The translations under genes and the position numbers were made by a program. A stretch of 38,070 nucleotides of DNA from contig CALWHG010000018.1 in the NCBI GenBank assembly GCA_944380315.1, positions 1-38,070 on the forward strand, given 5' to 3'. The notes beneath the pieces are model-generated. The model was not told where the DNA came from, made no database searches, and worked only from the letters and a program-made list of their open reading frames with translations. The stretch comes from an uncultured Lachnospiraceae bacterium. GTDB taxonomy: Bacteria > Bacillota > Clostridia > Lachnospirales > Lachnospiraceae. Numbering within the stretch: the stretch's first letter is position 1; each line of letters starts with the position of its first letter. This document shows, piece by piece, positions 1-20,103 of this stretch.

Positions 1-1961
1 TCCTGGATGTACTTTATGATGACGTCCCTCATGCTGACACCGTCAAGCACTTTCCTTCTTTCCTTATATACTATGTCTCTCTGCTCGTTGTTGACCTCGT
101 CATATTTGAGGAGCTGCTCACGGACACCGAAGTTGTTGCTCTCTATCTTCTTCTGAGCTCCCTCTATGGCCTTGGTGAGCATCTTGTGATGGATCTCCTC
201 ACCCTCCTCGACTCCGAGACGGTTGAACATGGTCATCAGGTTGTCCGCGCCGAAGAGACGGAGCAGATCATCCTCGAGAGAAAGGTAGAACTTTGATTCT
301 CCGGGATCTCCCTGTCTTCCTGAACGACCTCTGAGCTGATTATCTATACGTCTTGACTCATGGCGCTCAGTACCTATGATCCTGAGTCCACCGGCAGCCC
401 TTGCCTCCTCATCCAGCTTTATATCCGTACCACGTCCGGCCATGTTGGTGGCTATGGTCACGGCTCCGTGGCGTCCGGCCTCGGCAACTATCTCTGCCTC
501 CAGCTCGTGGAATTTTGCATTGAGCACCTTATGTGCTATGCCCCTGCGGTTGAGCATGCGGGACAGGAGCTCTGAGGTCTCTATGGTTATGGTGCCGACC
601 AGCACAGGCTGGCCCTTGGCGTGAGCCTCCTCGACCGAATCACATACGGCCTTGAATTTCTCCGCCTTTGTCTTATATACCGAGTCCTCGTGATCGATCC
701 TGATGACGGGAACATTTGTAGGTATGACTATGACATCCATGCCGTAGATGCTGCGGAACTCGTTTTCCTCAGTCTGTGCCGTACCGGTCATGCCCGCCTT
801 CTTCTCAAACTTGTTGAAGAAGTTCTGGAAGGTGATGGTGGCCAGGGTGCGGCTCTCACGCTTGACATTTACATGCTCCTTGGCCTCTATGGCCTGGTGG
901 AGTCCGTCAGAGTAGCGTCTGCCGGGCATGATACGTCCGGTGAACTCATCGACTATGAGGACCTCATCGTCCTTTACCACATAGTCCTTGTCCCTGTGCA
1001 TCAGGTTGTTTGCCCTGAGGGCAAGTATGATGTTGTGCTGGATCTCCAGGTTTTCGGGATCAGCCAGGTTCTGTATGTTGAAGAACCTTTCCACCTTGCC
1101 GACTCCCTGCTCGGTAAGGCTGACGGTCTTTTCCTTCTCATCGACTATGAAGTCTCCGGTCTCCTCTATCTCCTCGCCCATGATCGCATTGAACTTGGAG
1201 AACTCGGCAGAGGCCTCGCCTCTCTCCATCTGCTTGGCCAGCACGTCGCACATCTCATAAAGCTTGGTGCTCTTTCCTGACTGTCCCGATATGATCAGAG
1301 GTGTACGTGCCTCATCAATGAGCACGGAGTCCACCTCGTCTATGATGCAGTAGGCCAGATCCCTGAGCACCAGCTGCTCCTTATATATGGCCATGTTGTC
1401 CCTGAGGTAATCGAAGCCCAGCTCATTGTTGGTCACATAGGTTATGTCCTTTGCATACTGTGCCTTACGCTCAGCATTGTCCATGGAGTTGAGCACCACG
1501 CCGACTGAAAGGCCCAGGAACTCGTGCACCTTGCCCATCCACTCCGCGTCACGCTTGGCCAGATAATCATTTACCGTGACTATATGTACTCCCCTGCCGG
1601 TAAGAGCGTTGAGATATGCAGGACAGGTAGACACCAGGGTCTTTCCCTCTCCTGTCTTCATCTCCGCTATGCGTCCCTGATGGAGCACCACTCCACCTAT
1701 GAGCTGCACACGGAAATGTCTCATGCCAAGGACCCTGGAAGCAGCCTCCCTGACCGTAGCAAAGGCCTCCGGAAGTATGTCGTCCAGTGTCTCTCCCTTT
1801 GCAAGCCTGTCCCTGAACATAGGGGTCTGGGCCCTGAGCTCATCATCGCTCATGGCCGCCATCTTATCGGAAAGAGCCTCTATCCTGTCCACTATGGGAT
1901 AGATATGCTTAAGCTCACGCTCACTGTGAGTACCAAATACCTTTTCTATTAGATTTGCCAT
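1..1961 (-). CDS. secA: Preprotein translocase ATPase SecA (C-terminus beyond the window)
   Basis: SecA is the ATPase that drives unfolded preproteins through the SecYEG channel at the inner face of the membrane. Read on the minus strand, the protein begins [14 protein letters not shown]. It shows the Walker A motif TGEGKT near residues 103-108, the nucleotide-fold motif [14 protein letters not shown], the [11 protein letters not shown] and TGTA motifs, and in the second motor domain [11 protein letters not shown] and [11 protein letters not shown]. The 653 complete codons end in the helical scaffold at a [10 protein letters not shown] segment, so roughly the last fifth (wing and C-terminal linker) lies outside; this is a window-edge cut, not a broken gene. 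The ATG at 1961 follows AGGAGC by about seven bases. A promoter lies at 2026-2054. It is divergent from hpf, although hpf and secA are often co-directional neighbours in Firmicutes. Confidence 0.98.
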
Positions 1962-2025
1962 TTATTAGCTCCTGATATGCAAAGATTGCTGCTCTGTACA
2001 CCTAAATGCATACGATAACTAAAAT

Positions 2026-2054
2026 ATCTTATCACCATGCAGGCTTTTAAGCAA
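2026..2054 (-). promoter_or_regulatory. Promoter of secA
   Basis: On the minus strand, TTGCTT (2049-2054) is followed after exactly 17 bases by TAAGAT (2026-2031). A TG one base upstream of the -10 makes it an extended -10 element. Transcription would start near 2019, giving a leader of about 58 bases. Assigned by pattern only. Confidence 0.6.
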
Positions 2055-2155
2055 GTTTACCGACCGAATTTACGGATTTTTTAGTATTATATATGTCGTC
2101 CTCTGTTAAGCTGCACAAATATCCGCAGGCTTTCTCATGATTTTTGTATAAACAG

Positions 2156-2184
2156 TCGAAAAATCTCCAGATCTATGCTATACT
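2156..2184 (+). promoter_or_regulatory. Promoter of hpf (extended -10)
   Basis: TATACT at 2179-2184 is preceded by TG one base upstream (an extended -10). A poor -35 (TCGAAA, 2156-2161) lies 17 bases away. Transcription would begin near 2191, about 47 bases ahead of the hpf start. Assigned by pattern only. Confidence 0.5.
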
Positions 2185-2237
2185 GTCCTCAGAACAGCAG
2201 GAGCTGTTCCTATCCTAAAGGGAAGGGGAGTGATTTG

Positions 2238-2765
2238 ATGAAATTTACGATCACCGGACGCAACATAGCAGTAACAGAACGACTGAGGGCCCAGGTGGAA
2301 AAGAAACTGGGCAAGCTTTCCAAATTTTTCTCTCCCGATACCACAGCCATGGTCACGCTGTCGGTACAGAAGGATCTGCAGACCATAGAGGTGACCATAC
2401 CCGTAAAGGGTTCCATCATAAGAGCTGAGGAAAGCTCCACGGACATGTATGTATCCATCGATCTTGTAGAGGAGATCATAGAGAGACAGATCCACCGTCA
2501 TCGCAAAAAGCTCATAGACAAGACCCAGCACGCTGAAGCATTTTCCACTCTGTTTGCCGAGGAGGAGATGCCTGAGGAAGAGGCCGAGATCCGTATAGTA
2601 AAGATCAAGAAATTTGACTTCAAGCCCATGGATCCTGAGGAGGCCTGCCTCCAGATGGAGCTCCTTGGCCACAGCTTCTTCGTCTTCAAGAATGCTGAGA
2701 CCGATGAGACCTGCGTCGTATATAAGCGTAAGGGCGATACCTACGGACTCATAGAGCCCGAATGA
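2238..2765 (+). CDS. hpf: Long-form ribosome hibernation promoting factor (HPF/YfiA)
   Basis: HPF binds the 30S decoding region and, in its long form, dimerises ribosomes into inactive 100S particles during starvation. The 175-residue length fits the long form. The N-terminal ribosome-binding domain (about residues 1-100) carries the MKFTITGRN start and the YVSIDLVEEIIERQIHRHRKKL helix typical of the family. The C-terminal dimerisation domain (about 115-175) shows KKFDFKPMDPEEACLQMELLGHSFFVFKN and ends VVYKRKGDTYGLIEPE. The ATG at 2238 was chosen over an upstream in-frame start at 2175 because GGAAGGGGAG lies just before it and the protein then begins like its family. It is followed directly by a terminator. 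Induction in stationary phase is family knowledge, not visible here. Confidence 0.97.
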   Translation: MKFTITGRNIAVTERLRAQVEKKLGKLSKFFSPDTTAMVTLSVQKDLQTIEVTIPVKGSIIRAEESSTDMYVSIDLVEEIIERQIHRHRKKLIDKTQHAEAFSTLFAEEEMPEEEAEIRIVKIKKFDFKPMDPEEACLQMELLGHSFFVFKNAETDETCVVYKRKGDTYGLIEPE

Positions 2766-2788
2766 TCATAAAGCTTCATATGATACAC

Positions 2789-2819
2789 AAACGCCGGCGT
2801 CTGCCGGCGTTTTAATTTT
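2789..2819 (+). terminator. Intrinsic terminator of hpf, possibly bidirectional
   Basis: A perfect 10-bp stem (2789-2798 with 2803-2812, GTCT loop) is followed by a T-rich tract. It lies between convergent hpf and the NlpC/P60 gene, whose stop is at 2818. The minus-strand T-tract is weaker. Confidence 0.85.
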
Positions 2820-3411
2820 ATAAAAAGGTGCCAAGCTTCATGGGAGCACGGTAGTACATGCTGCTCACCTTTATGCCCGTCCTTTCATTTGAGGCATGGA
2901 CTATGAGCCCGTCACCGATGTAGATCCCCACATGGTTGACCCTTCCTCCTGAGCCGTAAAACACCAGATCTCCGGGCCTTAGCTGTGATGCATCTATGGT
3001 CCTGCTCCTCTGAGCCTGAGTCCTTGAGTCTCTTCCCGTATCTATGCCAAAGTTCTGAAATATCTTCATGACATAGCCTGAGCAGTCCACTCCGCTGGTG
3101 AGGGAAGTGCCTCCGTATCTGTATCTTCCTCCCACGAACTGCATGGCATAGGATACTATCTGGTCTCTCAGACTCTCCTCCCTGTACTCATCATATATCG
3201 CCTGGGAAAGGCCTGTGCCGTCTTCATCTCCTCCATTCATGATATCTGCCACTGCTCCCGCGCTGTCCACGGCCGCCTCTGCAGTCTCCGCTATCTGCTC
3301 GGCAAGCTCCATGCCCTTAAGCTCGTCTGCATGGGCCGTGCCTGCCATGAGGCCCGATGCCGCCATGAGGATGAGTATGAATCTGGATAGTCTTCTTTCC
3401 TTCGTTATCAA
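2818..3411 (-). CDS. Secreted NlpC/P60-family peptidoglycan endopeptidase
   Basis: NlpC/P60 enzymes cut peptide stems of peptidoglycan, typically D-gamma-Glu to diamino acid bonds, in the cell wall. The 197-residue protein has a basic N-terminus, a hydrophobic stretch at about 10-22 and a likely signal-peptidase site after THA near residue 28. An acidic, Ala-rich spacer follows, then the catalytic domain (about 83-197). The catalytic Cys is C110 in VDCSGYV, the His is H160 in VNHVGIYIG, and a third polar residue is H172 in IVHAS. There is no SH3 or other wall-binding domain. The start is TTG at 3411, chosen because GGGAGG (3421-3426) stands nine bases upstream and no ATG gives a signal peptide. 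Its leader holds an intrinsic-terminator-like hairpin abutting the Shine-Dalgarno sequence. Confidence 0.9.
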   Translation of the reverse strand: MITKERRLSRFILILMAASGLMAGTAHADELKGMELAEQIAETAEAAVDSAGAVADIMNGGDEDGTGLSQAIYDEYREESLRDQIVSYAMQFVGGRYRYGGTSLTSGVDCSGYVMKIFQNFGIDTGRDSRTQAQRSRTIDASQLRPGDLVFYGSGGRVNHVGIYIGDGLIVHASNERTGIKVSSMYYRAPMKLGTFL

Positions 3412-3426
3412 TAATATTTTCCTCCC

Positions 3427-3464
3427 AAAAAAAGATCACGCGGCGCCAAAAGCGCTGCGTGGTC
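3427..3464 (-). terminator. Intrinsic terminator hairpin abutting the nlpC ribosome-binding site
   Basis: On the minus strand, a 13-bp stem (3452-3464 with 3434-3446, one G-T pair at each of two positions, five-base loop) is followed by seven T (3427-3433). The next bases are the GGGAGG Shine-Dalgarno of the NlpC/P60 gene. It can end transcripts from the SDR operon, but it also lies downstream of the only TATAAT box in this gap, so it may act as an attenuator. Confidence 0.85.
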
Positions 3465-3480
3465 TATGTTAGCACAGGAA

Positions 3481-3509
3481 ATTATAAACTTTTTTTCTTT
3501 TTAACTACG
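3481..3509 (-). promoter_or_regulatory. Candidate promoter of the NlpC/P60 gene
   Basis: A perfect TATAAT on the minus strand (plus-strand 3481-3486) lies in an A-rich stretch between the SDR stop and the NlpC/P60 start. The matching -35 position (3504-3509, CGTAGT) is poor. The implied start near 3474 is only about ten bases ahead of the terminator hairpin. Confidence 0.4.
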
Positions 3510-3536
3510 GATTATCTTACAAAAAACTGAATCGGT

Positions 3537-4304
3537 TCAGATCCAGGCACCGTCAAGTCTTATGATCTGACCGGTCAGATATGGGCTGCACTGGCAAAGC
3601 TCTGCACATATCCTGGCAGCCTCTTTGGGGTCCCCAAACCGGCCTGCGGGTATGTCCTCTGCTATCGCCTGCTTTTCCTCTGGACTGAAGCAGTCATTCA
3701 TGCTGGTGTCCATGGCCCCAAGGCTCAGGGCATTGACACATATGCCGCTGGGAGCCAGCTCCTTTGCAAGGGCCCTGGTAAAGGCATCCACCCCTCCCTT
3801 GGAGGCCGAATAGGCTGCCTCCATGGAGGCTCCCACCTGTCCCCATACAGAGGAGATATTTACTATATGTCCGGACTTCCGGGATAGCATCAGAGGCACC
3901 GCCTTCCTGACCGTATAGAACATGCCTCCCAGATTTACGCCCATGAGCCGCTGCCACTGCTCCACGCTCATATCCTGTATGAGCCCCACATGGGATATGC
4001 CTGCATTGTTTATGAGCACAAGCTCTGCTCCGTCTCCAAGCTCCGAAAGCCTCTTTTCCACCAGGGAAAATATACGCTCAGAGGTCTCGGGAAAGCTTAT
4101 GTCTCCGGGCACTGCCCTGACCCAGGCACCCAGGCTCTCAAGCTCCAGGACCTTCCTTCCAAGCGCCGCCTCATCCCTGGCATTTATAACGAGTCCATAT
4201 CCCCGTCCTGCAAGCTCCAGGGCTATAGCTGAGCCTATGCCCCGGCTTGCACCGGTGATGACTCCTATCCTCTGGATGTCCATATCCATCTCCATCTGCT
4301 CCAT
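3537..4304 (-). CDS. SDR-family oxidoreductase, FabG-like
   Basis: This is a classical short-chain dehydrogenase/reductase of about 255 residues, close to the 3-oxoacyl-ACP reductase (FabG) type. It has the NAD(P)-binding GASRGIG near the N-terminus, NNAG, the catalytic Ser in ISSVWG and the YSASK catalytic Tyr-Lys pair; it ends in LTGQIIRLDGAWI. No fatty-acid synthesis genes are nearby, so the substrate is unknown and fabG is not assigned. The upstream ATPase stop overlaps the start (TGATG at 4302-4306), implying translational coupling. Four in-frame ATGs crowd the N-terminus. The ATG at 4283 sits six bases after an internal GGAG and gives the more usual start MDIQRIGVITG, so it is a fair alternative. 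A strong terminator follows. Confidence 0.88.
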   Translation of the reverse strand: MEQMEMDMDIQRIGVITGASRGIGSAIALELAGRGYGLVINARDEAALGRKVLELESLGAWVRAVPGDISFPETSERIFSLVEKRLSELGDGAELVLINNAGISHVGLIQDMSVEQWQRLMGVNLGGMFYTVRKAVPLMLSRKSGHIVNISSVWGQVGASMEAAYSASKGGVDAFTRALAKELAPSGICVNALSLGAMDTSMNDCFSPEEKQAIAEDIPAGRFGDPKEAARICAELCQCSPYLTGQIIRLDGAWI

Positions 4305-5512
4305 CACCCCTGGAGCAGGAAGCTGATCAGAGGGAAGTTGATTATGCCGCCCTTGTTGACCTTGGTCTCAGTGTCCATGGAAAGCACCATCTTGAAATAA
4401 TTGTCCCTGATCTTGACAAGGGGATTGAACTCTCTCTTTATGGCCTCATTGCTGCTCAGGTATTCGCAGCAGTTAAGATAGGTACGGTCCTCGGACTTCA
4501 CCGCCATGAAATCCACCTGGTACCTTCCCTGCTTGCCCACATAGGTCTTGAAGCCACGGGTCATGAGCTCCATATGGAGCACATTTTCCATGGCCACGCT
4601 CCTTGCTGCCTCGTCTCCTCCCATGACCTGGTTACGCATGGCCACGTCACAGACATAGTACTTTTCCTGGGTCTCCAGCTCCTTGTCATTTTTAATGTCA
4701 TAGCGGGGCACCCTGTATATGAGTCCTGAGCCGCAGAGAGCATCCAGCACTGAGTATACCGTATCCACCGATATGGTCACTCCCTGTGCCTTTATATAAT
4801 CCCTCAGAGCCTTGGGAGAATACACCTCGCCGAGATTTGACATGACATAGCCCGCTATCTTGTCTATATGGTTTATGTCCCTGAGGCCGTTGCATCTTAC
4901 CACGTCCTTAAGGATGGCTGCACTGTAGGTGTCCTTGAGCCAGGCCTCCGCTGCCTCCTCATCCATGGAATATACTGCGGGAAATGCTCCCCGGCGGAGA
5001 TATACCTCAAAAAGCTCCTCGTCACTGAGCCCGGACAGCTTTTCATCCGTCGAAGCCAGCTCCACGAATTCACTGAATATGAGAGGATATACGTCTATCC
5101 TGACATAGCGATAGGAAAGATCCTTCTGGAAGCCATCATAAAACAGAGAGGCATTTGAAGAGGATACATATACATCGCAGTCAAAGAGATTCAGCAGCTC
5201 TGAGCAGACCTTTGCCCAGCCTCTTATATCCTCAACTTCATCAAGGAACACATAGCAGTGTCCTGCTGCGGCTCCGAGGAATTCTAGCAGCATCTCCCTG
5301 AGGGCAGCCTCCGAGGTGAAGTAGTTGTAAATGAGCTTTTCAAAGTCAAGATAGATGATGTTTTCATCAGGCACTCCGTTCTCTCTCAGCTCATCCATGA
5401 ACTGCTTCATGATGACAGTCTTTCCGCAGCGCCTTACACCGGTCATGATCTTCACCACGTCACGTCCGGTATACATCTCAAGCCTCTTCAGATACATTTC
5501 TCTCTTAAGCAT
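4304..5512 (-). CDS. AAA-type ATPase with DUF4143-like C-terminus
   Basis: A 402-residue P-loop ATPase of the group often annotated ATP-binding protein with AAA_14 and DUF4143 domains. The N-terminus has Walker A GVRRCGKT (about 25-32) and Walker B YVFLDEVE (about 87-94). The C-terminus carries a winged-helix-like segment (ALRDYIKAQGVTISVDTVYSVLDAL) and ends in a region resembling a PD-(D/E)XK nuclease fold, with YQVDFMAVK followed by YLNCCEYL. The cellular role of this family is not established; a DNA-linked or toxin-like role has been suggested from its domains. It overlaps the stop of the GNAT-Maf gene (TGATG), with AGGGGG six bases before the ATG at 5512. A GTG at 5515 is a weaker alternative. 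Such genes are often accessory, so its place in a housekeeping run is mildly odd. Confidence 0.85.
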   Translation of the reverse strand: MLKREMYLKRLEMYTGRDVVKIMTGVRRCGKTVIMKQFMDELRENGVPDENIIYLDFEKLIYNYFTSEAALREMLLEFLGAAAGHCYVFLDEVEDIRGWAKVCSELLNLFDCDVYVSSSNASLFYDGFQKDLSYRYVRIDVYPLIFSEFVELASTDEKLSGLSDEELFEVYLRRGAFPAVYSMDEEAAEAWLKDTYSAAILKDVVRCNGLRDINHIDKIAGYVMSNLGEVYSPKALRDYIKAQGVTISVDTVYSVLDALCGSGLIYRVPRYDIKNDKELETQEKYYVCDVAMRNQVMGGDEAARSVAMENVLHMELMTRGFKTYVGKQGRYQVDFMAVKSEDRTYLNCCEYLSSNEAIKREFNPLVKIRDNYFKMVLSMDTETKVNKGGIINFPLISFLLQG

Positions 5513-6579
5513 CACATACCCCCTGCTCTGAGCCTTCTTGCCACCTCAGCCACGGGCAGTCCCATGACCGTATAATAATCCCCCTTTATCTCCTTTACGA
5601 GAAGAGCGCCTTCCTCCTGTATACCATAGGCTCCCGCCTTGTCCATGGGCTCTCCCGTAGCCACATAGGCCTTTATCTCCTCATCACTGAGCTCATAAAA
5701 GGTGACCTCAGTGGAGGAGGTGAAGCTTTCCCTTCCCTTTGGCGATATGATGGTCACTCCTGTCCGTACCTCGTGGGTCCTGCCTGAGAGCTCCCTGAGC
5801 ATGCGCTCCGCATCCGCCTCATCCTGAGGCTTGCCGTATATCCTTCCGTCCATGATCACCACCGTATCGGAGCCTATGACGGTCACCGGCCTGTGTCCAT
5901 ATCTTTCGTGGACCTCCGAAGCCTTTATGCCTGACAGATATTCAGCTGCCTGACTTACGTCCATGCCCTCAGGCAGGCTCTCATCTCCCTTTGAGGGATC
6001 CACAAAGAAGGGTATGCCCAGCTTCTTCATAAGCTCACGCCTCCTGGGAGAGTTGGAGGCCAGTATAAGGTCCGCCTCTCTCTGATAGGCTATCCTGGGA
6101 GTACCGTCAGATACCGTATGGATGATGCCACACCTTGTAAATCCACTCTTTTCTATAAGATGCTGCATGGGTATGTTGTCTGCATGGGTGTCTATCCTCA
6201 GATTGCCGTACCAGCCAAAGCACTGCTCAAGACAGTAAGCTGCGGCACCTCTTCCCTTGGCCCACTGGGCAGTAGCCACCCTGTGTATGACTCCATACTC
6301 CGCATCATTGAGCCAGGCACCATCCTCTATGCTCAGGTACGAGGGATCAAGTCCCACAAAAAATGCAAAGACGCAGGCTATGTTCCTGGATCCGGACCTG
6401 GGCCTTGCCACATAGAGCTGTGAGAGCTCTATATCATTCATGATCTCCTCGTCCGTAGGATAGCCTCCCACCCACTGGGTAGGATTTCCGTTGTCAGACA
6501 TGAAGGACCTGGCATAGGCATATATGTCCCTGATCTCCGGCAGATCCCTGCCTCTCGCCCTTTCGATCATAAATTCCAT
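5512..6579 (-). CDS. GNAT acetyltransferase fused to a Maf nucleotide pyrophosphatase
   Basis: Two domains share one open frame of 355 residues. Residues 1-165 look like a GNAT N-acetyltransferase: a substrate-side N-terminus, VIHRVATAQWAKGRGAAAYC at the acetyl-CoA loop (about 98-116), and the closing DNIPMQHLIEKSGF segment. From about residue 170 a complete Maf domain follows, with LILASNSPRRRELM (171-184), GSDTVV (236-241), GKPQDEADA, GEPMDKAGAYGIQ (309-321) and GDYYTVMGLP (333-342). Maf proteins hydrolyse non-canonical or excess NTPs to NMP plus pyrophosphate and have been linked to septum inhibition. The ATG at 6579 follows AGGAGG by eight bases, and no second start signal is evident before the Maf part. 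The acetyl acceptor is unknown. The junction leaves almost no linker. Confidence 0.9.
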   Translation of the reverse strand: MEFMIERARGRDLPEIRDIYAYARSFMSDNGNPTQWVGGYPTDEEIMNDIELSQLYVARPRSGSRNIACVFAFFVGLDPSYLSIEDGAWLNDAEYGVIHRVATAQWAKGRGAAAYCLEQCFGWYGNLRIDTHADNIPMQHLIEKSGFTRCGIIHTVSDGTPRIAYQREADLILASNSPRRRELMKKLGIPFFVDPSKGDESLPEGMDVSQAAEYLSGIKASEVHERYGHRPVTVIGSDTVVIMDGRIYGKPQDEADAERMLRELSGRTHEVRTGVTIISPKGRESFTSSTEVTFYELSDEEIKAYVATGEPMDKAGAYGIQEEGALLVKEIKGDYYTVMGLPVAEVARRLRAGGM

Positions 6580-13546: not shown

Positions 13547-14353
13547 TCACAGCATGTGCCTGTAGGATTTTTTAAGGCGTCCCAAAAGCTCTGAGGCCTC
13601 TGAAAGGGCGCTTACCGAATCCTTGCGGAACATCTGGTCAAGCTCCTTCATGCCATGTCCGGATAATATCTTAAGTTTAGTTTCTTCTTTCCTGCTGTCA
13701 AGGCTTTTTTTATCCTCGTCAGATATGTCTGCCTCTCCCGTAAGGAGATACTTCATCTCCCTGGCCCTGGCAGTCTTCACGAAAAGCTCGGACTGGAGTA
13801 TGAGCTCCAGTGCCTTCCGGTCCTCAAACAGCAGTATCTTCACCACTGCCATATCAAGATAACAGTCCGCCTTCATGCGCAGCAGCTTTTCCCTGACAGC
13901 CGGATCCTGGGATCTGCGCATCCTGTCATCGGCTGCCTGGGCGGCCTCCTCAAACTTGTCATATGCCGGCCCAAGCCTGTCTGCCCTGAAATATCCTGCT
14001 CCTACCGCATGAAGATACTCCTCCTGCTCATAGCGGCTTATCTCCACCAGCCTGTCCATGTAGACATTTATCTCAGGTCTCGTATAATATCCAAGACTTC
14101 CGAGTATCATGAGGAGCATGTTGTCCTCTGTCTCCCCTTCAGCCTCAGCCTGTCTCAGCCGTGAGGAAAGCTCCTTTTCCATGAGCTCCTTTCCTATCCA
14201 CTCTATCAGATCCTCAGACAGGAGACCGTCAGTCACCATGAGGGGATAGTTATAGATAAGATAGCAGAGCTCCTGAGAGGACCAGAGCCTGATATTCAGT
14301 TTTTCAAAATAATAGGGTACAGCAGCCTGCTGCTTACATAATATGAGTGCCAT
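13547..14353 (-). CDS. Helical protein, third gene of the DUF5716/DUF5717 cassette
   Basis: I do not recognise a named family. The 268-residue soluble protein appears all-helical, with TPR-like character. A helix at 98-115 (VYMDRLVEISRYEQEEYLHA) is followed by GAGYFRADRLGPAYDKFEEAAQAADD, which has the spacing of a TPR pair, and by DCYLDMAVVKILLFEDRKALELILQSE. The C-terminus is basic (RLKKSYRHML). No signal peptide or membrane span is visible. Its ATG overlaps the DUF5716 stop by one base (TGATG), so it is probably translated together with it, and it should be read as a partner of the two upstream proteins. A scaffold or co-chaperone role is inference. Confidence 0.8.
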   Translation of the reverse strand: MALILCKQQAAVPYYFEKLNIRLWSSQELCYLIYNYPLMVTDGLLSEDLIEWIGKELMEKELSSRLRQAEAEGETEDNMLLMILGSLGYYTRPEINVYMDRLVEISRYEQEEYLHAVGAGYFRADRLGPAYDKFEEAAQAADDRMRRSQDPAVREKLLRMKADCYLDMAVVKILLFEDRKALELILQSELFVKTARAREMKYLLTGEADISDEDKKSLDSRKEETKLKILSGHGMKELDQMFRKDSVSALSEASELLGRLKKSYRHML

Positions 14354-15573
14354 CAGAAATCTATCTCCGTTACTGTCTCGGCCTCCGTAGCCGGGAAGAA
14401 ATCACCAAAGCCCATGTCCTTAAAGCAGATCTCCATCTGATCCGGTCCCTTGAGGCTCAGATCCATGGAGAGCCTTGTGCATCTATCAGGCCTTTCAGGC
14501 AGCTCTCCGAAGCCTGCGGATCTGGTGACTCTGCTTCTGTGCCTGTCCACCGGTACTATGTCTATGTCTGCATGGTCCTGTCTGTCAGGTATGAACTCGG
14601 CATGTGCCTTGTAGCCATACCAGCAGATGCCTGCGGGAGCAAGTATCAGACGGCTCTGGCGTCCCTCTGCGCTCACCTCCATGCCTATCTCGGCAGATAG
14701 CCTTGTATCGCAGATCACCAGCCTGTCTTCCTGTACTCCCCGAAGCAGCTCATCCATATAGATGGCCGCTCCCCTGGCAAATATGCCCTCCTCAAATATG
14801 ACCCTCCTGCGCTTGCAGATGAACTCCTTGAATTCCTCGGCCCATTCCGTATCGGAAAAGCCCTTGCCCGTCAGGAATACTGAGGAGTATATCTTCCTGT
14901 CCATCAGCTTCCTTGCGCATTCGGCTATGATGTGATCTGCCAGCTTCCTTCCGGAATCAGTCTTCAGCACATCTATGTGGAAGGCCTCCTCCAGGTCAGT
15001 GCCGCTGCACATGACTGTCTGACGTCCCACGCCTCTTATGACCCTGAATTCATAATATGAAAATACCTCTTCGGAAAGATCGAACACAGCCACAAGGTTG
15101 TTATAAAGCTCCTTTTCCTTCGGAAGTATATAATGTATGAGCGCTTCCTCATGGCTCGATATCCTGAAGCTCCCTTCAGGGAGTCCCAGGGCTGCCACGG
15201 CCTCCGAGGCCCTGTCCATGAGCTCAGGATCAGCCTTGTGAAGTACAAGGCAAAGTCCCTCTATGTCCTGCAGCTCCCGGTCTCCCAGTGCCTCTTTGAG
15301 CGCAAAGCGCAGGAACTCCGTGCACAGCTCGACTGAGCTGTAGGTCCGGTCTCCGACCGTGGATCTGCCATCCTTTTTAAGCAGTGAGACCAGCTTGTCA
15401 GTAAGCACGCCCTTGCCTGAGAGAGCCATGCGATAGGCCTCTTCACCTATATGCCAGTATTCCTTTTTCTTGTCCCTGCAGATGACCGTGGGCATGGAGG
15501 TGACCTCATCCTCACCGGCCACGCTTATCACCGTATAGTCATCGCACAGATCTACGCCAATCCTTAGTGCCAT
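14353..15573 (-). CDS. DUF5716-like protein with an actin/Hsp70 (ASKHA) fold
   Basis: The 406-residue protein reads like an Hsp70/FtsA-type ATPase. Elements in order are a phosphate-1-like strand RIGVDLCDDYT (4-14), SSHEEALIHYIL (139-150), a phosphate-2-like VFDLSEEVFSYYEF (163-176), an adenosine-loop-like VFLTGKGFSDT (232-242) and the helix EGIFARGAAIYMDEL (262-276). A beta-rich tail (about 285-406) resembles an Hsp70 substrate-binding beta domain. Canonical DxG glycines are replaced (D8-L-C10 and D165-L-S167), so nucleotide binding may be altered. I believe this is the family called DUF5716, from memory. The ATG at 15573 follows AAGGA by six bases and lies two bases after the DUF5717 stop. 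It is coupled to both neighbours. Function unknown. Confidence 0.8.
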   Translation of the reverse strand: MALRIGVDLCDDYTVISVAGEDEVTSMPTVICRDKKKEYWHIGEEAYRMALSGKGVLTDKLVSLLKKDGRSTVGDRTYSSVELCTEFLRFALKEALGDRELQDIEGLCLVLHKADPELMDRASEAVAALGLPEGSFRISSHEEALIHYILPKEKELYNNLVAVFDLSEEVFSYYEFRVIRGVGRQTVMCSGTDLEEAFHIDVLKTDSGRKLADHIIAECARKLMDRKIYSSVFLTGKGFSDTEWAEEFKEFICKRRRVIFEEGIFARGAAIYMDELLRGVQEDRLVICDTRLSAEIGMEVSAEGRQSRLILAPAGICWYGYKAHAEFIPDRQDHADIDIVPVDRHRSRVTRSAGFGELPERPDRCTRLSMDLSLKGPDQMEICFKDMGFGDFFPATEAETVTEIDF

Positions 15574-15575
15574 AA

Positions 15576-18086
15576 TCAATCCTTAATATCAAACATGCTC
15601 CTGCGCTCACCATCCATGAGCAGATATTCCTTAAGTCCCTCGGAAAGCTCATCTATCCTGGCCTCCTTAAGGTCCCGGGTCATGCTGTCAAGCATGGAAT
15701 ATCTGTCCTTTTCCCGGCCGTGCAGCTTCTTTACACTGATGGTGCCCTCCTGTACAGTGGAATCCGACACGCTGTCATCATATATCATATAATGCAGCTC
15801 ATCCTCCACGAACAGTATGGTGCTCATGACATAGATGCCGCCGTACACCCGCACCATCTCTTCCCTGTGGAAATCCTCATCCTCCGGAGATATCCTGACA
15901 TAGAGCCTGGGCGGGGTCTCCCTGTCTCCATGATATTCAATATAATATCTCTCGCAGATCTCCTTTGGTATGGATATCTTCTTTTTCAGAGCCTTGGTAT
16001 ACCTAAAGACCAGTCCGTGGCTGATAAGTATGTCCACCAGCCTCTGGCAGAGGTCGGCCTCGTTCTGGAGCAGGCTCTCCTTCTCCTGATAATGCTTTGT
16101 AAGCGCCAGCAGATATATGTCCGGCAGCTTTTCATAGTCCTCAGCAGAGCTAACATAGGAGTACAGTATCTCAAAAAAGCTGTCAGGAAGGCTGTCGTCC
16201 TCCTTTTCAAAATACCTGTCGCACCTGACGGTGAGATAGGCACATATGATATTTTCCTTCTGCTCACAGCGCCTCAGATATATGTCAAAGCTTTCGTCCA
16301 AATGCTCATCCGAGGACGTGAACAGCTTGGCTGTCACCACCTTCTCCGGGAGCTCATATACCTCACAGGAAAGGCTGTCAGCCCTCTCAAGCAGCTCATA
16401 CATGTCCTCTGAGGAGCCTTCATAGGATCTGGTCAGAAATTCCAGGATCTCCCTGCACTCGCTGCCCTCATGGAATGCCCTGAGGCACAGAGACATGAAG
16501 AAACCGTCCGTCTCTCCCTTGACGGTGGGTATGCTGCCCGTGCGTATGAGGGAAGCTGCAAGGAGCTCCGCATCGCCTTCACCCAGCAGATCCTCCCCGT
16601 ATCTCCTCAGGCGGAGATAGGCATCCTCAAAATATCCCTCCTTAAGGAGGCCCCGGAACACAAGGCTCCGTATGTCCTCGCCATAGCCATCAAGATCCGT
16701 GTCCCTGAAGGCGGATACGCCGCCCTTATAGCTGCACAGTGCTTTTATGATGGAGCTCTGGAAGGGTATGGAGAGTCTCAGCTTCTGGAACGCATCCGAA
16801 AGTATGGCCGCCTCCGTATCATTTTCCAGACCCTTTTTGAGCACGTTTTTCGCTGCCGCAAGCTTGAGCATGGGATGCTCCGGACATATCTCAAAGCAGC
16901 GCTTGAGAAGATCCGGCCTCTTGAGCAGCGGCCTGTCAGCATATACTATATCCTCAAGCACACTTCCTGAGGCATCCACGAACAGTATGTCCGTATCCTC
17001 AAAATATATGGGCACATAGGCAGAGCCTGAGACCAGAGGATATCTTTCCTCATAGCTCAGCTCAGGAGATCTGAGCCTTACCGACTTTGCCCGCCTGTCT
17101 CCCGTGGTCATGTGGTGGCTCTTAAGTATGTCCGGCAATATGGCAGCCGATCTCCGGTCTATCATATTGGGGAAAAGCATCCTGTCATATATCACCGCCA
17201 GCTTTTCATCTATCTTCCCTTCAAACAGGCAGTCCATGGCATAGTCCCTGATCCTGGGCTCGTATGAGGCGTAAAGCTCTGAATCCGGCTCCTGATAAAG
17301 GAGTATGTTCCGATAAAGGCAGGCCTTCCTCTCAGGATCGAGGTCGTTGTCGTAGGAAAAATATATGAGCACGCTCCTGGGCATCTCCTCATCCAGATCC
17401 TCAGGATAGGCATAGATATAATACTCATAAAGCCTTGTAAGCTCCAGATCCCTGCGCACAGCCTCACTGTATATGCTGAAGGCAAAGCCATCAGTCACAT
17501 CGTTTGTTATGAGGATGCCGCATACCTCTGAAAGCAGCTCATCATCCTCCGGGATATGCTCTCCGAGGAATGAGAGGGCCTCAAGCCTTAAGGTCTCCTC
17601 TGCCCCGGTCTCAGAAGCCTGATCAGGCTGTCCCTCGGTAAGGTCCTCAGCCCCTTTGCTATCAGCCTCTGTAGCCTGCTCCTCAGCTTCCGCATCTTCC
17701 TGTCCGTCATATGTCAGATCCAGCTCCTTCTCCTCCTCAGGAAGGGCGGTCACCTCAAATCTGTAGGGAAGCTCCAGCTCTCCTGCATTGGTCGTAAGAG
17801 AGAGGCTCCCCTCCAGGACCGAGCCCGGAGCCATGAAAGAGGTATCCACATAAAATACCACATGACAGCGTCTCCCCATGAAGGCTCTGGTCTCAGGCAC
17901 TACCCTGGGATCATCGCAGTGGCAAAGCCCCTTCATGCGGAACACATCGTCTGAATCTATGATCAGGTCATATTTCCTTTTGGCATCCGGGGGCAGCACA
18001 TCGTCAAAGCGCTCCGGATAGAAACGGAGCCTGGGTATGTCTCTGTCTATGATGCCTCTTGCAAGCCTGTTGATCTTTTCTTTCAT
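15576..18086 (-). CDS. Large DUF5717-like protein
   Basis: An 836-residue protein, first gene of the cassette, with no assigned function. Residues 1-115 begin MKEKINRLARGIIDRDIPRL and are beta-rich (LIIDSDDVFRMKGLC; HVVFYVDTSF; GSLSLTTNAGELELPYRFEV), suggesting a beta-sandwich. A strongly acidic linker spans about 114-165. A long helical-repeat region of TPR-like helices then runs to about residue 720. The C-terminus returns to beta structure (PPRLYVRISPEDEDF; GGIYVMSTILFVEDELHYMIYDDSV) and ends charged. There is no signal peptide or transmembrane helix, so it is probably cytoplasmic. I chose the ATG at 18086 over a TTG at 18122 because GAGG stands six to seven bases upstream. The DUF5717 name is from memory of similar Lachnospiraceae proteins. 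Confidence 0.8.
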   Translation of the reverse strand: MKEKINRLARGIIDRDIPRLRFYPERFDDVLPPDAKRKYDLIIDSDDVFRMKGLCHCDDPRVVPETRAFMGRRCHVVFYVDTSFMAPGSVLEGSLSLTTNAGELELPYRFEVTALPEEEKELDLTYDGQEDAEAEEQATEADSKGAEDLTEGQPDQASETGAEETLRLEALSFLGEHIPEDDELLSEVCGILITNDVTDGFAFSIYSEAVRRDLELTRLYEYYIYAYPEDLDEEMPRSVLIYFSYDNDLDPERKACLYRNILLYQEPDSELYASYEPRIRDYAMDCLFEGKIDEKLAVIYDRMLFPNMIDRRSAAILPDILKSHHMTTGDRRAKSVRLRSPELSYEERYPLVSGSAYVPIYFEDTDILFVDASGSVLEDIVYADRPLLKRPDLLKRCFEICPEHPMLKLAAAKNVLKKGLENDTEAAILSDAFQKLRLSIPFQSSIIKALCSYKGGVSAFRDTDLDGYGEDIRSLVFRGLLKEGYFEDAYLRLRRYGEDLLGEGDAELLAASLIRTGSIPTVKGETDGFFMSLCLRAFHEGSECREILEFLTRSYEGSSEDMYELLERADSLSCEVYELPEKVVTAKLFTSSDEHLDESFDIYLRRCEQKENIICAYLTVRCDRYFEKEDDSLPDSFFEILYSYVSSAEDYEKLPDIYLLALTKHYQEKESLLQNEADLCQRLVDILISHGLVFRYTKALKKKISIPKEICERYYIEYHGDRETPPRLYVRISPEDEDFHREEMVRVYGGIYVMSTILFVEDELHYMIYDDSVSDSTVQEGTISVKKLHGREKDRYSMLDSMTRDLKEARIDELSEGLKEYLLMDGERRSMFDIKD

Positions 18087-18131
18087 CCTTATCCTCTGTT
18101 CTTCCTTCAGAAAAATAAACAAAGATACTAT

Positions 18132-18160
18132 ATTTTATCATACTTTAATCCGTATATCTA
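18132..18160 (-). promoter_or_regulatory. Promoter of the DUF5717-DUF5716 cassette
   Basis: On the minus strand, TAGATA (18155-18160) and TAAAAT (18132-18137) are separated by 17 bases. TG one base ahead of the -10 makes an extended -10. It lies between the HAD-gene terminator and the DUF5717 start. Confidence 0.5.
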
Positions 18161-18211: not shown

Positions 18212-18238
18212 GAAAAAAGGACGCTTTAAAAGCGTCCT
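18212..18238 (-). terminator. Intrinsic terminator of the HAD phosphatase gene
   Basis: On the minus strand, a stem AGGACGC/GCGTCCT (18232-18238 with 18218-18224), extendable into its TTTTAAA centre, is followed by a run of T (18213-18217 onward). It isolates the DUF5717 cassette from the gene upstream. Confidence 0.85.
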
Positions 18239-19113: not shown

Positions 19114-20103
19114 TCAGAAAGACAGATTTTCATCATAAAGCTCAAAAAAATCATCAACTGAAGTGCCCAGGGCCTCCGAAAGATCCAGGTCATTCCAGAA
19201 CCTTTCCCCGAACCTGACAGGGTGCTCCTCCCTGTAGCTGTCATATACCTCTGAAAATGCCTTTGTATTGATGGCCGCCTCAAGCATGGCCTTGCGGTCC
19301 GCCGTAGCCTCCTGATCATAGCCGTTGGTACACTTGATGATATAGTAGAGTCCGTCGCACTCTATGATATTTGATATGTCTCCCTCATCGAGTGAAAATG
19401 CCGTCTCCTCATAGAGCCCGCCTATGCTGCCTCTCCTGAGCTCCCTGGTCACCTCATCCGACTCCGTATATCTGCTTGCCATGGTGGCAAAATCCGATCC
19501 GTCTATCTTGCAGAGCTTAAGTATGGCCAGAGCCTTCTTCAGATCTGAGGTCACTATCTGCTGCACCTCTATGACCTTTGCCTCCGAATCGCTGATATCG
19601 CTCTGGGCATCCTCGGTAAGCCTCCTTATAAGCTTATCCGCCTGGAAGATGTCCTCATATACGGTCTGGACATCCTCTATACTGCAGCCGATAAGCTCCA
19701 GATCCTCAGCGCTGAGGCCGCTGTAATAGAGCTCACTCACATCCCTTATGCTGTCCCTTTCCTGGCTCGTCACCGTCACTCCCTGCTCCTCGGCCAGCAT
19801 GCAGAGGAGCTTTATCTGCTCCAGATATTCCTTGACATTGTCCGTAAGCACCTCCTCAAAGGGCTTATCCTCTCCCTCTACCGTCACATCGAGCACCGCA
19901 TCCGTATAGGCGGATCTGTATCGGTTGAGCTCATTTACCAGGACTATCATGGCCTGGCTCTCAGTATAACCTGCTATCTGCTCAGTCTTGTTCTCCAGCT
20001 CAAGGCCCCTGCATGCAGATACGGAAAATGACGATACTAAAAGTATCGCCATAAGAAGCAGTTTGCTGTATCCTTTTTTAAATGATCTTGTAAACAGACT
20101 CAA
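19114..20103 (-). CDS. PrsA-like peptidyl-prolyl isomerase lipoprotein
   Basis: A 329-residue exported lipoprotein resembling PrsA/SurA-type foldases, which assist folding of secreted proteins outside the membrane. It has a basic N-terminus (RSFKKGYSK), a hydrophobic core and the lipobox VSAC with lipidated C31. A helical chaperone-like region follows (about 60-165). A divergent parvulin-like domain spans about 170-270, with DFATMASRYTESDEVTRELRRGSIGGLYEETAFSLDEGDISNIIECDGLYYIIKCT matching the PpiC layout. The C-terminus is acidic and ends FFELYDENLSF. The start is TTG at 20103, with GGGG nine bases upstream; no ATG would retain the full signal peptide. Isomerase activity is not certain because the domain is divergent. 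Confidence 0.82.
   Translation of the reverse strand: MSLFTRSFKKGYSKLLLMAILLVSSFSVSACRGLELENKTEQIAGYTESQAMIVLVNELNRYRSAYTDAVLDVTVEGEDKPFEEVLTDNVKEYLEQIKLLCMLAEEQGVTVTSQERDSIRDVSELYYSGLSAEDLELIGCSIEDVQTVYEDIFQADKLIRRLTEDAQSDISDSEAKVIEVQQIVTSDLKKALAILKLCKIDGSDFATMASRYTESDEVTRELRRGSIGGLYEETAFSLDEGDISNIIECDGLYYIIKCTNGYDQEATADRKAMLEAAINTKAFSEVYDSYREEHPVRFGERFWNDLDLSEALGTSVDDFFELYDENLSF

What the first reader, a model, noticed from the sequence alone, without database searches (positions are those of the whole stretch)
13547..18160. Three-gene actin/Hsp70-like cassette (DUF5717, DUF5716-like, helical partner) as a candidate undescribed system
A dedicated promoter (18132-18160), placed just after a terminator, drives three genes. 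The first two lie end to start (two bases between the DUF5717 stop and the next ATG) and the second and third overlap by one base, so the products are probably made in fixed ratio. Protein 2 has actin/Hsp70-fold elements in order plus a beta-rich tail. Protein 1 is 836 residues with beta ends, an acidic linker and long helical repeats. Protein 3 is all-helical and TPR-like. This is the parts list of a chaperone or cytoskeleton-type machine (ATPase, large client or scaffold protein, TPR adaptor), but I know of no function. The set is cytoplasmic and sits beside valS, which hints at translation or proteostasis.
Basis: partly seen in the sequence, partly recalled or inferred. Interest (0 to 1): 0.75.

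Follow-up and report, generated by a model that had tools for sequence, protein, structure and literature searches.

The report
Core Lachnospiraceae pseudo-Hsp70 chaperone cassette
Three neighbouring genes of unknown function, carried by nearly all sampled members of a major gut-bacterial family, look like the stripped-down remains of a larger protein-folding machine whose central chaperone has lost its ATP-splitting parts.

Summary
The three genes are real and placed as described: DUF5717 (836 aa), DUF5716 (406 aa) and a TPR-related protein (268 aa). DUF5717 is found in 195 of 200 genomes of the window's family (Lachnospiraceae), 121 of 246 of its order and 6 of 398 in a phylum-wide sample, five of those six in the family. 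Other families of the order carry a longer operon with split DUF5717, three intact Hsp70s (one fused to VWA), a GrpE-domain protein, DUF5716 and a TPR protein. Profile comparison and a tree show that DUF5716 is a degenerate Hsp70: it groups with the operon's third Hsp70, and the Lachnospiraceae version nests inside the long-operon version. Its phosphate-2 motif (DxGGGT) is absent in all 87 rows examined. The window cassette is best read as a reduced chaperone machine that lost its own Hsp70 ATPases and GrpE but kept a scaffold, a pseudo-Hsp70 and a TPR-related adaptor. Most likely it organises housekeeping chaperones or clients; that step is inferred. A valS link is not general (3 of 101 loci).

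The parts
15576..18086 (-). Protein 1, DUF5717 (836 aa): N-terminal beta-rich region, acidic linker, helical body (TPR-like in some relatives), C-terminal beta-rich DUF5717 region
   Evidence: Pfam PF18984/PF18983; 5 of 40 relatives give weak TPR_19 matches, best 9e-07; folds inferred from sequence, no structure model
17745..18086 (-). Protein 1 N-terminal beta-rich region (residues 1-114); 68 of 69 aligned rows have a further region of about 100 residues that this protein lacks
   Evidence: alignment A4, segment table, coordinates; fold is inference
17595..17735 (-). Acidic linker of protein 1 (residues 118-164)
   Evidence: 20 of the 50 residues 117-166 are D or E
14353..15573 (-). Protein 2, DUF5716 (406 aa): degenerate, lidless Hsp70 (nucleotide-binding-type domain plus beta substrate-binding-type tail)
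   Evidence: PF18980; profile match end to end to operon Hsp70 H3 (99.6%, 411 columns) and H2 (100%, 412 columns); tree
15523..15564 (-). Remnant of the phosphate-1 loop (residues 4-17)
15052..15093 (-). Position of the phosphate-2 motif; DxGGGT absent (residues 161-174)
14842..14886 (-). Altered adenosine-motif region (residues 230-244, G-x-GF...W)
13547..14353 (-). Protein 3 (268 aa): short form of the operon's TPR protein, with its conserved N-terminal domain
   Evidence: profile match of the short family to the long-operon TPR protein 99.8% over 182 columns; TPR_2 in 28 of 42 members of alignment A6, not in the window member itself
18132..18160 (-). Promoter-like site, 9 of 12, extended -10
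   Evidence: not clearly above background
18218..18238 (-). Terminator-like hairpin after the upstream HAD gene

Best explanation
The cassette is the reduced, near-universal Lachnospiraceae form of a dedicated Hsp70 chaperone machine. SHOWN (by sequence): the longer operon of related families holds two DUF5717 proteins, three Hsp70s with intact ATP motifs (one fused to VWA), a protein with a C-terminal GrpE domain, a degenerate Hsp70 (DUF5716) and a TPR protein. The Lachnospiraceae cassette keeps DUF5717 (as one protein), DUF5716 and a shortened TPR-related protein, without the active Hsp70s or the GrpE protein at the locus. DUF5716 descends from the degenerate Hsp70 and lacks the phosphate-2 motif of Hsp70 ATPases. 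INFERRED: proteins 1-3 form one complex, in which DUF5717 is the scaffold, DUF5716 is a non-hydrolysing pseudo-Hsp70 that holds a client or partner in a fixed state through its beta domain, and protein 3 is the adaptor that brings in the housekeeping chaperones DnaK or HtpG, which now supply ATP turnover. In genera that have the fourth gene (C4, two transmembrane segments plus coiled coil) the complex is probably anchored to the inner face of the membrane; in this genus it would be soluble.
For: Long operon layout. HSP70, GrpE, VWA and TPR matches; GrpE in 29 of 29 GrpE-type proteins scanned. DUF5716 against operon Hsp70 H3: 99.6% over 411 columns, E 2.9e-24; against H2: 100% over 412 columns; six profiles of unrelated operon proteins as negative controls score at most 0.2%. 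Tree: P2, H2 and H3 together are one side of a branch at 100/100, and P2 nests within H2 with the f4 long-operon member as sister, 100/98; with DnaK as outgroup this gives the direction long to short. DxGGGT in 33/33, 31/31 and 25/26 of H1, H3 and H4 but 0/34 H2 and 0/87 P2 rows. Order P1-P2-P3 in 78 of 80 named loci, the other two running off the fetched end. DUF5717 in 195/200 family genomes. In the 246 genomes of the order, read side by side, 115 have both DUF5717 and DUF5716_C, 6 only the first, 2 only the second. DUF5717 distances follow DnaK distances in 11 family genomes, r 0.78, p 0.001. Own genome: the only Hsp70-family matches are DnaK and one MreB-sized protein; no GrpE-fusion protein in 7 family genomes searched. 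A gene clustering with htpG lies within four genes upstream in 15 of 101 loci, in 12 of them with a PrsA-like gene; the window has a PrsA-like gene two genes upstream.
Against: No structure model could be made, so the folds, the complex and any nucleotide binding are untested. DUF5716 against DnaK directly is weak: 93.6% over 177 columns with one profile (P2, 22 rows), 24% over 50 columns with the other (A5, 65 rows); A5 against H1 and H4 is also weak, 17% and 4%. The link runs through H2 and H3. HSP70 is not among the 24 Pfam families hit by the 65 short DUF5716 members at E<=0.5. The window's protein 3 itself hits no TPR model. Several P2 and H2 branches in the tree are very long, the window's among them. 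Fast divergence (30-40% identity where valS is 70% and DnaK 85%) is unlike a general chaperone. No J-domain was found in the operon proteins scanned. Loss of motifs does not prove loss of ATP binding.
Confidence: 0.5

Rival explanations
1. Membrane-linked structural scaffold: the degenerate actin/Hsp70-fold protein, the solenoid protein and the coiled-coil membrane protein form a static assembly for cell organisation, with no chaperone activity left.
For: ATP motifs lost; fourth gene in 76 of 80 sampled loci, with two predicted transmembrane segments in 14 of 16 members examined; near-universal in the family; another membrane coiled-coil gene (c6, three segments in 11 of 13) begins a number of long operons.
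Against: C4 is found in only 90 of 200 family genomes and not in the window genome or its congener G750; nearest relatives are Hsp70s with substrate-binding domains; the MreB match of window protein 2 is E 0.13, below cut-off.
Confidence: 0.2
2. Conflict or stress-response machine akin to the GTPase-centred Hsp70/GrpE neighbourhoods of PMC7159879, reduced in Lachnospiraceae.
For: Shared parts: Hsp70, GrpE, a second Hsp70-like gene, TPR, VWA (PMC7159879, section 29, read); fast sequence divergence; long-operon Hsp70s H3 and H4 match a candidate-defence model, PDC-M61B, at 3.9e-11 and 2e-07, and the long TPR protein matches a PrimPol model at 4.4e-06 and PDC-M71B at 0.0043, though Hsp70 and TPR domains are widespread and such matches may only reflect the shared domain.
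Against: No GTPase or GAP1 match in any of the eight L062 operon proteins scanned; in 195/200 family genomes, nearly always one match each, and tracking DnaK distances, unlike accessory defence genes; window protein 3 has no PADLOC match and protein 2 only Cas1_IIIa at E 0.03.
Confidence: 0.12
3. A translation or aminoacyl-tRNA synthetase partner, as the first reader hinted from valS.
For: valS downstream in window, L113 and L117 and near it in L069 and L074, both of one genus of another family; one genome fuses the C4 protein to a Glu/Gln-type tRNA synthetase (L118).
Against: Full-length valS was found in only 3 of 101 family loci, while a PurF-like and a PurB gene lie within three genes downstream in 52 and 48 of 101.
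Confidence: 0.08

Closest known systems
Hsp70/DnaK-GrpE chaperone machine
   Same: Long-operon relatives have Hsp70s with the three nucleotide motifs, a GrpE domain and a TPR protein; DUF5716 is homologous end to end to one of those Hsp70s.
   Different: The window cassette has no active Hsp70, no GrpE and no J-domain; DUF5716 lacks the phosphate-2 motif; DUF5717 of the window matches only DUF models over cut-off, with no chaperone counterpart known to me.
GAP1-N2 GTPase-centric systems, Hsp70/GrpE theme (PMC7159879, 2020)
   Same: Gene neighbourhoods with Hsp70, GrpE, a second Hsp70-like gene and a TPR- or DnaJ-fused component; VWA proteins occur in other themes of the same systems.
   Different: Those are defined by a double-GTPase and GAP1, neither of which was found among the operon proteins scanned; they are described there as conflict systems, while this is near-universal in one family.
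CoCoNuT CnuD Hsp70-like proteins (PMC11090510, 2024)
   Same: Bacterial Hsp70-like NBD/SBD proteins whose authors predict ATP hydrolysis at extremely low efficiency at best.
   Different: CnuD partners McrBC homologues; here the partners are DUF5717 and a TPR-related protein.
Pfam DUF5716_C (PF18980) and DUF5717 (PF18983/PF18984)
   Same: Window proteins 1 and 2 are members.
   Different: Pfam's descriptions as listed give no function; the link of DUF5716 to Hsp70 is made here.

Membership tests
Hsp70 family (by descent) | End-to-end homology covering nucleotide-binding and beta substrate-binding domains | tested here: met
   hhalign P2 vs H3 99.6%, 411 columns; vs H2 100%, 412 columns; tree 100/100 with H2 and H3. 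Direct P2 vs DnaK weak
Hsp70 family (active ATPase) | Phosphate-2 motif DxGGGT | tested here: not met
   0 of 87 P2 rows, 0 of 34 H2; present in 33/33 H1, 31/31 H3, 25/26 H4
Hsp70 family (active ATPase) | Phosphate-1 motif DxGTT[NH] | tested here: not met
   0 of 87 P2 rows, though G-x-D-L-G is often kept; for H1, H3 and most H4 this motif was used to assign the class, so their score on it is circular
Hsp70 family (active ATPase) | ATP binding and hydrolysis | not testable with these tools
   no structure model, no assay
TPR proteins | Recognisable TPR units | tested here: inconclusive
   28 of 42 aligned members (three long-operon proteins among the 42) hit TPR_2 at E<=0.5; the window protein itself hits none; profile match to the long TPR protein 99.8% over 182 columns
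MreB/actin filament proteins | MreB_Mbl model over cut-off | tested here: not met
   E 0.13, 11.5 bits against cut-off 27
GAP1-N2 GTPase-centric systems | DO-GTPase and GAP1 in the operon | tested here: not met
   no such Pfam match among eight proteins of the L062 operon; flanking genes were not all scanned
Anti-phage defence systems | Match to known or candidate defence proteins | tested here: inconclusive
   window protein 3 none, protein 2 only Cas1_IIIa E 0.03; window protein 1 was not given to PADLOC, its relative in L062 had none; long-operon H3, H4 and TPR protein do match candidate models
Anti-phage defence systems | Patchy, mobile distribution | tested here: not met
   195/200 family genomes; distances track DnaK
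DUF5716 / DUF5717 | Pfam model over gathering score | tested here: met
   241.1 bits vs 34.7; 337.7 and 199.1 vs 25

The most novel reading that the evidence does not exclude
A whole bacterial family has, as a core cell component, a chaperone machine that discarded its own ATP-driven Hsp70s and GrpE and kept the scaffold, a pseudo-Hsp70 and a TPR-related adaptor, which now act as a fixed platform (membrane-bound in many genera) that positions housekeeping DnaK or HtpG on dedicated clients.
Probability: 0.3. Interest if true: 0.85.

Novelty: new variant of a known kind. Interest (0 to 1): 0.7.

Why it matters
Lachnospiraceae are among the main bacteria of the human and ruminant gut (general knowledge). 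DUF5717 is in 195 of 200 sampled genomes of the family, yet no function was found in the held library: 0 papers contain DUF5717 and one paper on another subject contains DUF5716 (listing only). Tracing DUF5716 to a degenerate Hsp70 inside a multi-Hsp70/GrpE/TPR operon turns two 'unknown function' families into a testable chaperone hypothesis. It also offers a natural series, from full machine to engine-less remnant, for asking what a pseudo-Hsp70 does.

Tried and rejected
Searches of PDB sequences with DUF5716 (A5), DUF5717 (A4) and one GrpE-fusion protein gave nothing at E<=1. I suspected that two N-terminal beta regions of DUF5717 relatives are repeats of one Ig-like fold; segment comparison gave only 8.8% probability, so I do not claim it. 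valS link rejected as a general feature. Defence reading: the window's proteins 2 and 3 have no convincing PADLOC match, but long-operon Hsp70s and the TPR protein do match candidate models. A first profile set for H2 contained misassigned H1 proteins; the H2 comparisons were redone with clean classes and only those are used; the P3 against TPR-protein comparison does not involve them. Left out of the class counts: frames under 400 aa, one Hsp70-4 fragment of L080, and the loci L081 and L098. G167 (another family) carries a window-like short cassette on a 15-kb contig of an 86%-complete, 5%-contaminated genome; transfer or contamination cannot be told apart. It is left out of the claims on distribution, but its proteins are rows in the P2 and P3 profiles. 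G003's long operon (L080) has broken Hsp70-4 and TPR reading frames and a short c3, suggestive of decay, but it is a draft genome of 60 contigs. The names of the Hsp70 motifs (phosphate-1, phosphate-2, adenosine, lid) and of PurF and GltX come from general knowledge.
Full report
OBSERVATION. The three genes are present at the stated coordinates, on the minus strand, with the stated junctions (two bases between genes 1 and 2, one-base overlap between 2 and 3). Pfam assigns protein 1 to DUF5717 and protein 2 to DUF5716, both far over cut-off; protein 3 has no match of its own. The upstream terminator-like hairpin is clear. The promoter-like site exists but is not clearly above the background of such matches in the region. 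valS follows after 43 bases with no terminator-like site listed between.

DISTRIBUTION. The window's family is Lachnospiraceae, because several fetched family contigs have the same length as named Lachnospiraceae contigs (G005:C18 and NZ_FRDH01000003.1 Butyrivibrio hungatei, both 863,493 bases; G234:C9 and FMWZ01000006.1, both 235,433). DUF5717 is found in 195 of 200 genomes of the family (194 of 199 genera; 162 of 165 high-quality genomes), nearly always with one match. It is in 121 of 246 genomes of the order and in 6 of 398 of a phylum-wide sample, five of these in the window's family and the sixth below the cut-off. Reading the two order lists side by side, 115 genomes have DUF5717 and DUF5716_C, 6 only DUF5717, 2 only DUF5716_C and 123 neither. 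Two of the six (G048, G131) do carry a degenerate Hsp70 in the DUF5716 place that the model missed.

FIXED ORDER. Of 80 named loci fetched with a DUF5716 pattern (so DUF5716 is present by construction), 78 have genes 1, 2 and 3 in this order (one of them with two gene-3 frames); in the other two a gene runs off the fetched end. A fourth gene, C4, is detected in 76 of 80. In 20 loci of unnamed family genomes, some the same genomes as named ones, the order is the same in 19; in the twentieth (L117) gene 2 was hidden by an overlapping reading frame in my gene caller and is found. C4 has two predicted transmembrane segments in 14 of 16 members. It is found in 90 of 200 family genomes but not in the window's genome or the one congener in the sample.

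THE LONG OPERON. In other families of the order the locus is much longer (40 stretches from 37 genomes were fetched, two of them with the short form, and the rest include partial and split loci). A typical operon, L062, reads: DUF5717 N-terminal protein, DUF5717, Hsp70-1, a 630-aa protein ending in a GrpE domain, DUF5716 (H2), Hsp70-3, Hsp70-4 fused to a VWA domain, TPR protein. All 29 GrpE-type proteins scanned match GrpE. Pfam coverage suggests that these Hsp70s have the nucleotide-binding and beta substrate-binding domains but no helical lid (inference). The layout is not invariant: in G072 (L099-L101) the parts lie in three places, and in L086 and L087 several of the genes are missing.

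DUF5716 IS A DEGENERATE HSP70. The long-operon DUF5716 protein of L062 matches both PF18980 (2.2e-33) and PF00012 HSP70 (1.8e-14). With clean classes, the short DUF5716 profile (22 rows, window included) matches H2 at 100% over 412 columns and H3 at 99.6% over 411 columns, H4 and H1 at 96% and 94% over partial stretches (220 and 186 columns); six profiles of other operon proteins score at most 0.2%. The second profile (65 rows) gives 100%, 98.7%, 3.9% and 17% for H2, H3, H4 and H1, and 24% for DnaK, so the direct link to distant Hsp70s is weak and the relation rests on H2 and H3. In the tree (62 rows), P2, H2 and H3 together are one side of a branch with support 100/100; P2 is one group and nests inside H2, with the H2 of L080 (family f4) as its sister at 100/98. 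Several P2 and H2 branches are long, the window's among them, so the deeper order is less sure. With DnaK, H1 and H4 as outgroup, the active paralogues lie outside, so the long operon is the older arrangement and the cassette in the window is a reduction. A DnaK tree of 30 genomes puts the 12 family members on one side of a branch, but with weak support (85/69), and f4 next to them; it is unrooted, and the G102 row is very long.

LOST MOTIFS. DxGGGT (phosphate-2) is in 33/33 H1, 31/31 H3, 25/26 H4, 0/34 H2 and 0/87 P2 rows. The P2 rows include the window twice and at least one genome twice (L103 and L122). DxGTT[NH] (phosphate-1) is in no H2 or P2 row, but that motif was used to assign H1, H3 and most H4, so their scores on it are circular. 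The window keeps a G-x-D-L remnant and an altered adenosine-motif region. So hydrolysis is very unlikely; binding is untested.

PROTEINS 1 AND 3. DUF5717 of the window is shorter than the usual length in the named loci (median 1191 aa of 74 complete frames); it lacks a further N-terminal region of about 100 residues that 68 of 69 aligned rows have. Among 40 DUF5717 proteins of both forms the TPR_19 model matches 5, at best 9e-07. Protein 3's family shares with the long TPR protein a conserved N-terminal domain and the first repeats (99.8% over 182 columns); 28 of 42 aligned members match TPR_2 at E<=0.5, the window's does not.

WHAT SUPPLIES ATP TURNOVER NOW. In the window's genome the only HSP70-model matches are DnaK and one MreB-sized protein. 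Among 12 family genomes searched for PF00012 none of the listed matches lies next to DUF5717; at least five have a further Hsp70 elsewhere, and in one (G234) it is on the DUF5717 contig, about 10 kb away, in a frame with a stop (the table is cut at the weak end). The GrpE-fusion protein was not found in 7 family genomes; the two weak hits there match only the GrpE part in short frames. I therefore infer, without proof, that housekeeping DnaK or HtpG is the partner. In 15 of 101 family loci a gene clustering with htpG is within four genes upstream, in 12 of these with a PrsA-like gene (one representative of each was checked with Pfam; L103 and L122 are one genome). The window has a PrsA-like gene two genes upstream, without htpG.

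TEMPO AND INHERITANCE. Between the window and G193, identities are 33% (protein 1), 40% (protein 2), 30% (protein 3), against 70% for valS and 85% for DnaK. DUF5717 distances follow DnaK distances: r 0.62 over all 25 genomes compared, 0.78 (p 0.001) within 11 of the 12 family genomes (G102, with its aberrant DnaK row, left out), and 0.45 (p 0.014) among 12 long-operon genomes. A core, largely vertically inherited, fast-changing set fits a complex under weak sequence constraint or co-evolving with specific clients; it does not fit mobile defence.

NEIGHBOURS. Among 101 family loci (window, 20 unnamed, 80 named, with some genomes twice), a full-length valS was found in 3; a PurF-like and a PurB gene lie within three genes downstream in 52 and 48, in a sample biased to close relatives.

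LITERATURE. No paper in the held library has the word DUF5717; one paper on another subject has DUF5716 (listing only). The nearest printed idea is the Hsp70/GrpE theme of GAP1-N2 GTPase systems (PMC7159879; passages and section 29 read). CoCoNuT CnuD proteins are another poorly hydrolysing Hsp70-like group (PMC11090510; passages read). Two further searches gave nothing nearer: one search found no paper, one search listed 20 of 76 papers, none opened. One search listed nine papers, of which these two were opened.

VERDICT. The strongest new result is the origin of DUF5716 from a multi-Hsp70/GrpE/TPR operon and its near-universal retention, with DUF5717, in Lachnospiraceae.

Noticed in passing
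L118:4761-7613: In genome G238 the C4 membrane coiled-coil protein is fused, through an acidic linker, to a Glu/Gln-type tRNA synthetase (PF00749 and PF19269 matched over nearly their full lengths) in one 950-aa frame.
   Followed up: partly
L103, L108, L144 and others, upstream of DUF5717: A gene clustering with htpG (Hsp90) lies within four genes upstream of the cassette in 15 of 101 family loci, in 12 with a PrsA-like peptidyl-prolyl isomerase.
   Followed up: partly
window 19114-20103: PrsA-like PPIase two genes upstream of the cassette, same strand; Rotamase_3 just over its cut-off.
   Followed up: no
L080 (G003) 1205-4384: Long operon with broken Hsp70-4 and TPR frames and a short c3, in the family whose DUF5716 is sister to that of Lachnospiraceae.
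   Followed up: partly
L071, L079, L085: DUF5717 frames of 1326, 1006 and 1179 aa in some long operons without a separate N-terminal protein, so the fusion may have happened more than once.
   Followed up: no
L063, L065-L067, L072 and others, upstream of the DUF5717 N-terminal protein: A membrane protein with about three transmembrane segments and a coiled coil (c6) precedes DUF5717 in 13 of the fetched loci; no Pfam match over cut-off in the two scanned.
   Followed up: no
L098/L235 (G167:C40): A window-like short cassette in a genome assigned to another family; transfer or contamination.
   Followed up: partly
L062:5859-7499, 3787-5862, 2612-3775: Long-operon Hsp70s and TPR protein match candidate-defence models of PADLOC (PDC-M61B, PrimPol, PDC-M71B), possibly only through the shared domain.
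   Followed up: no
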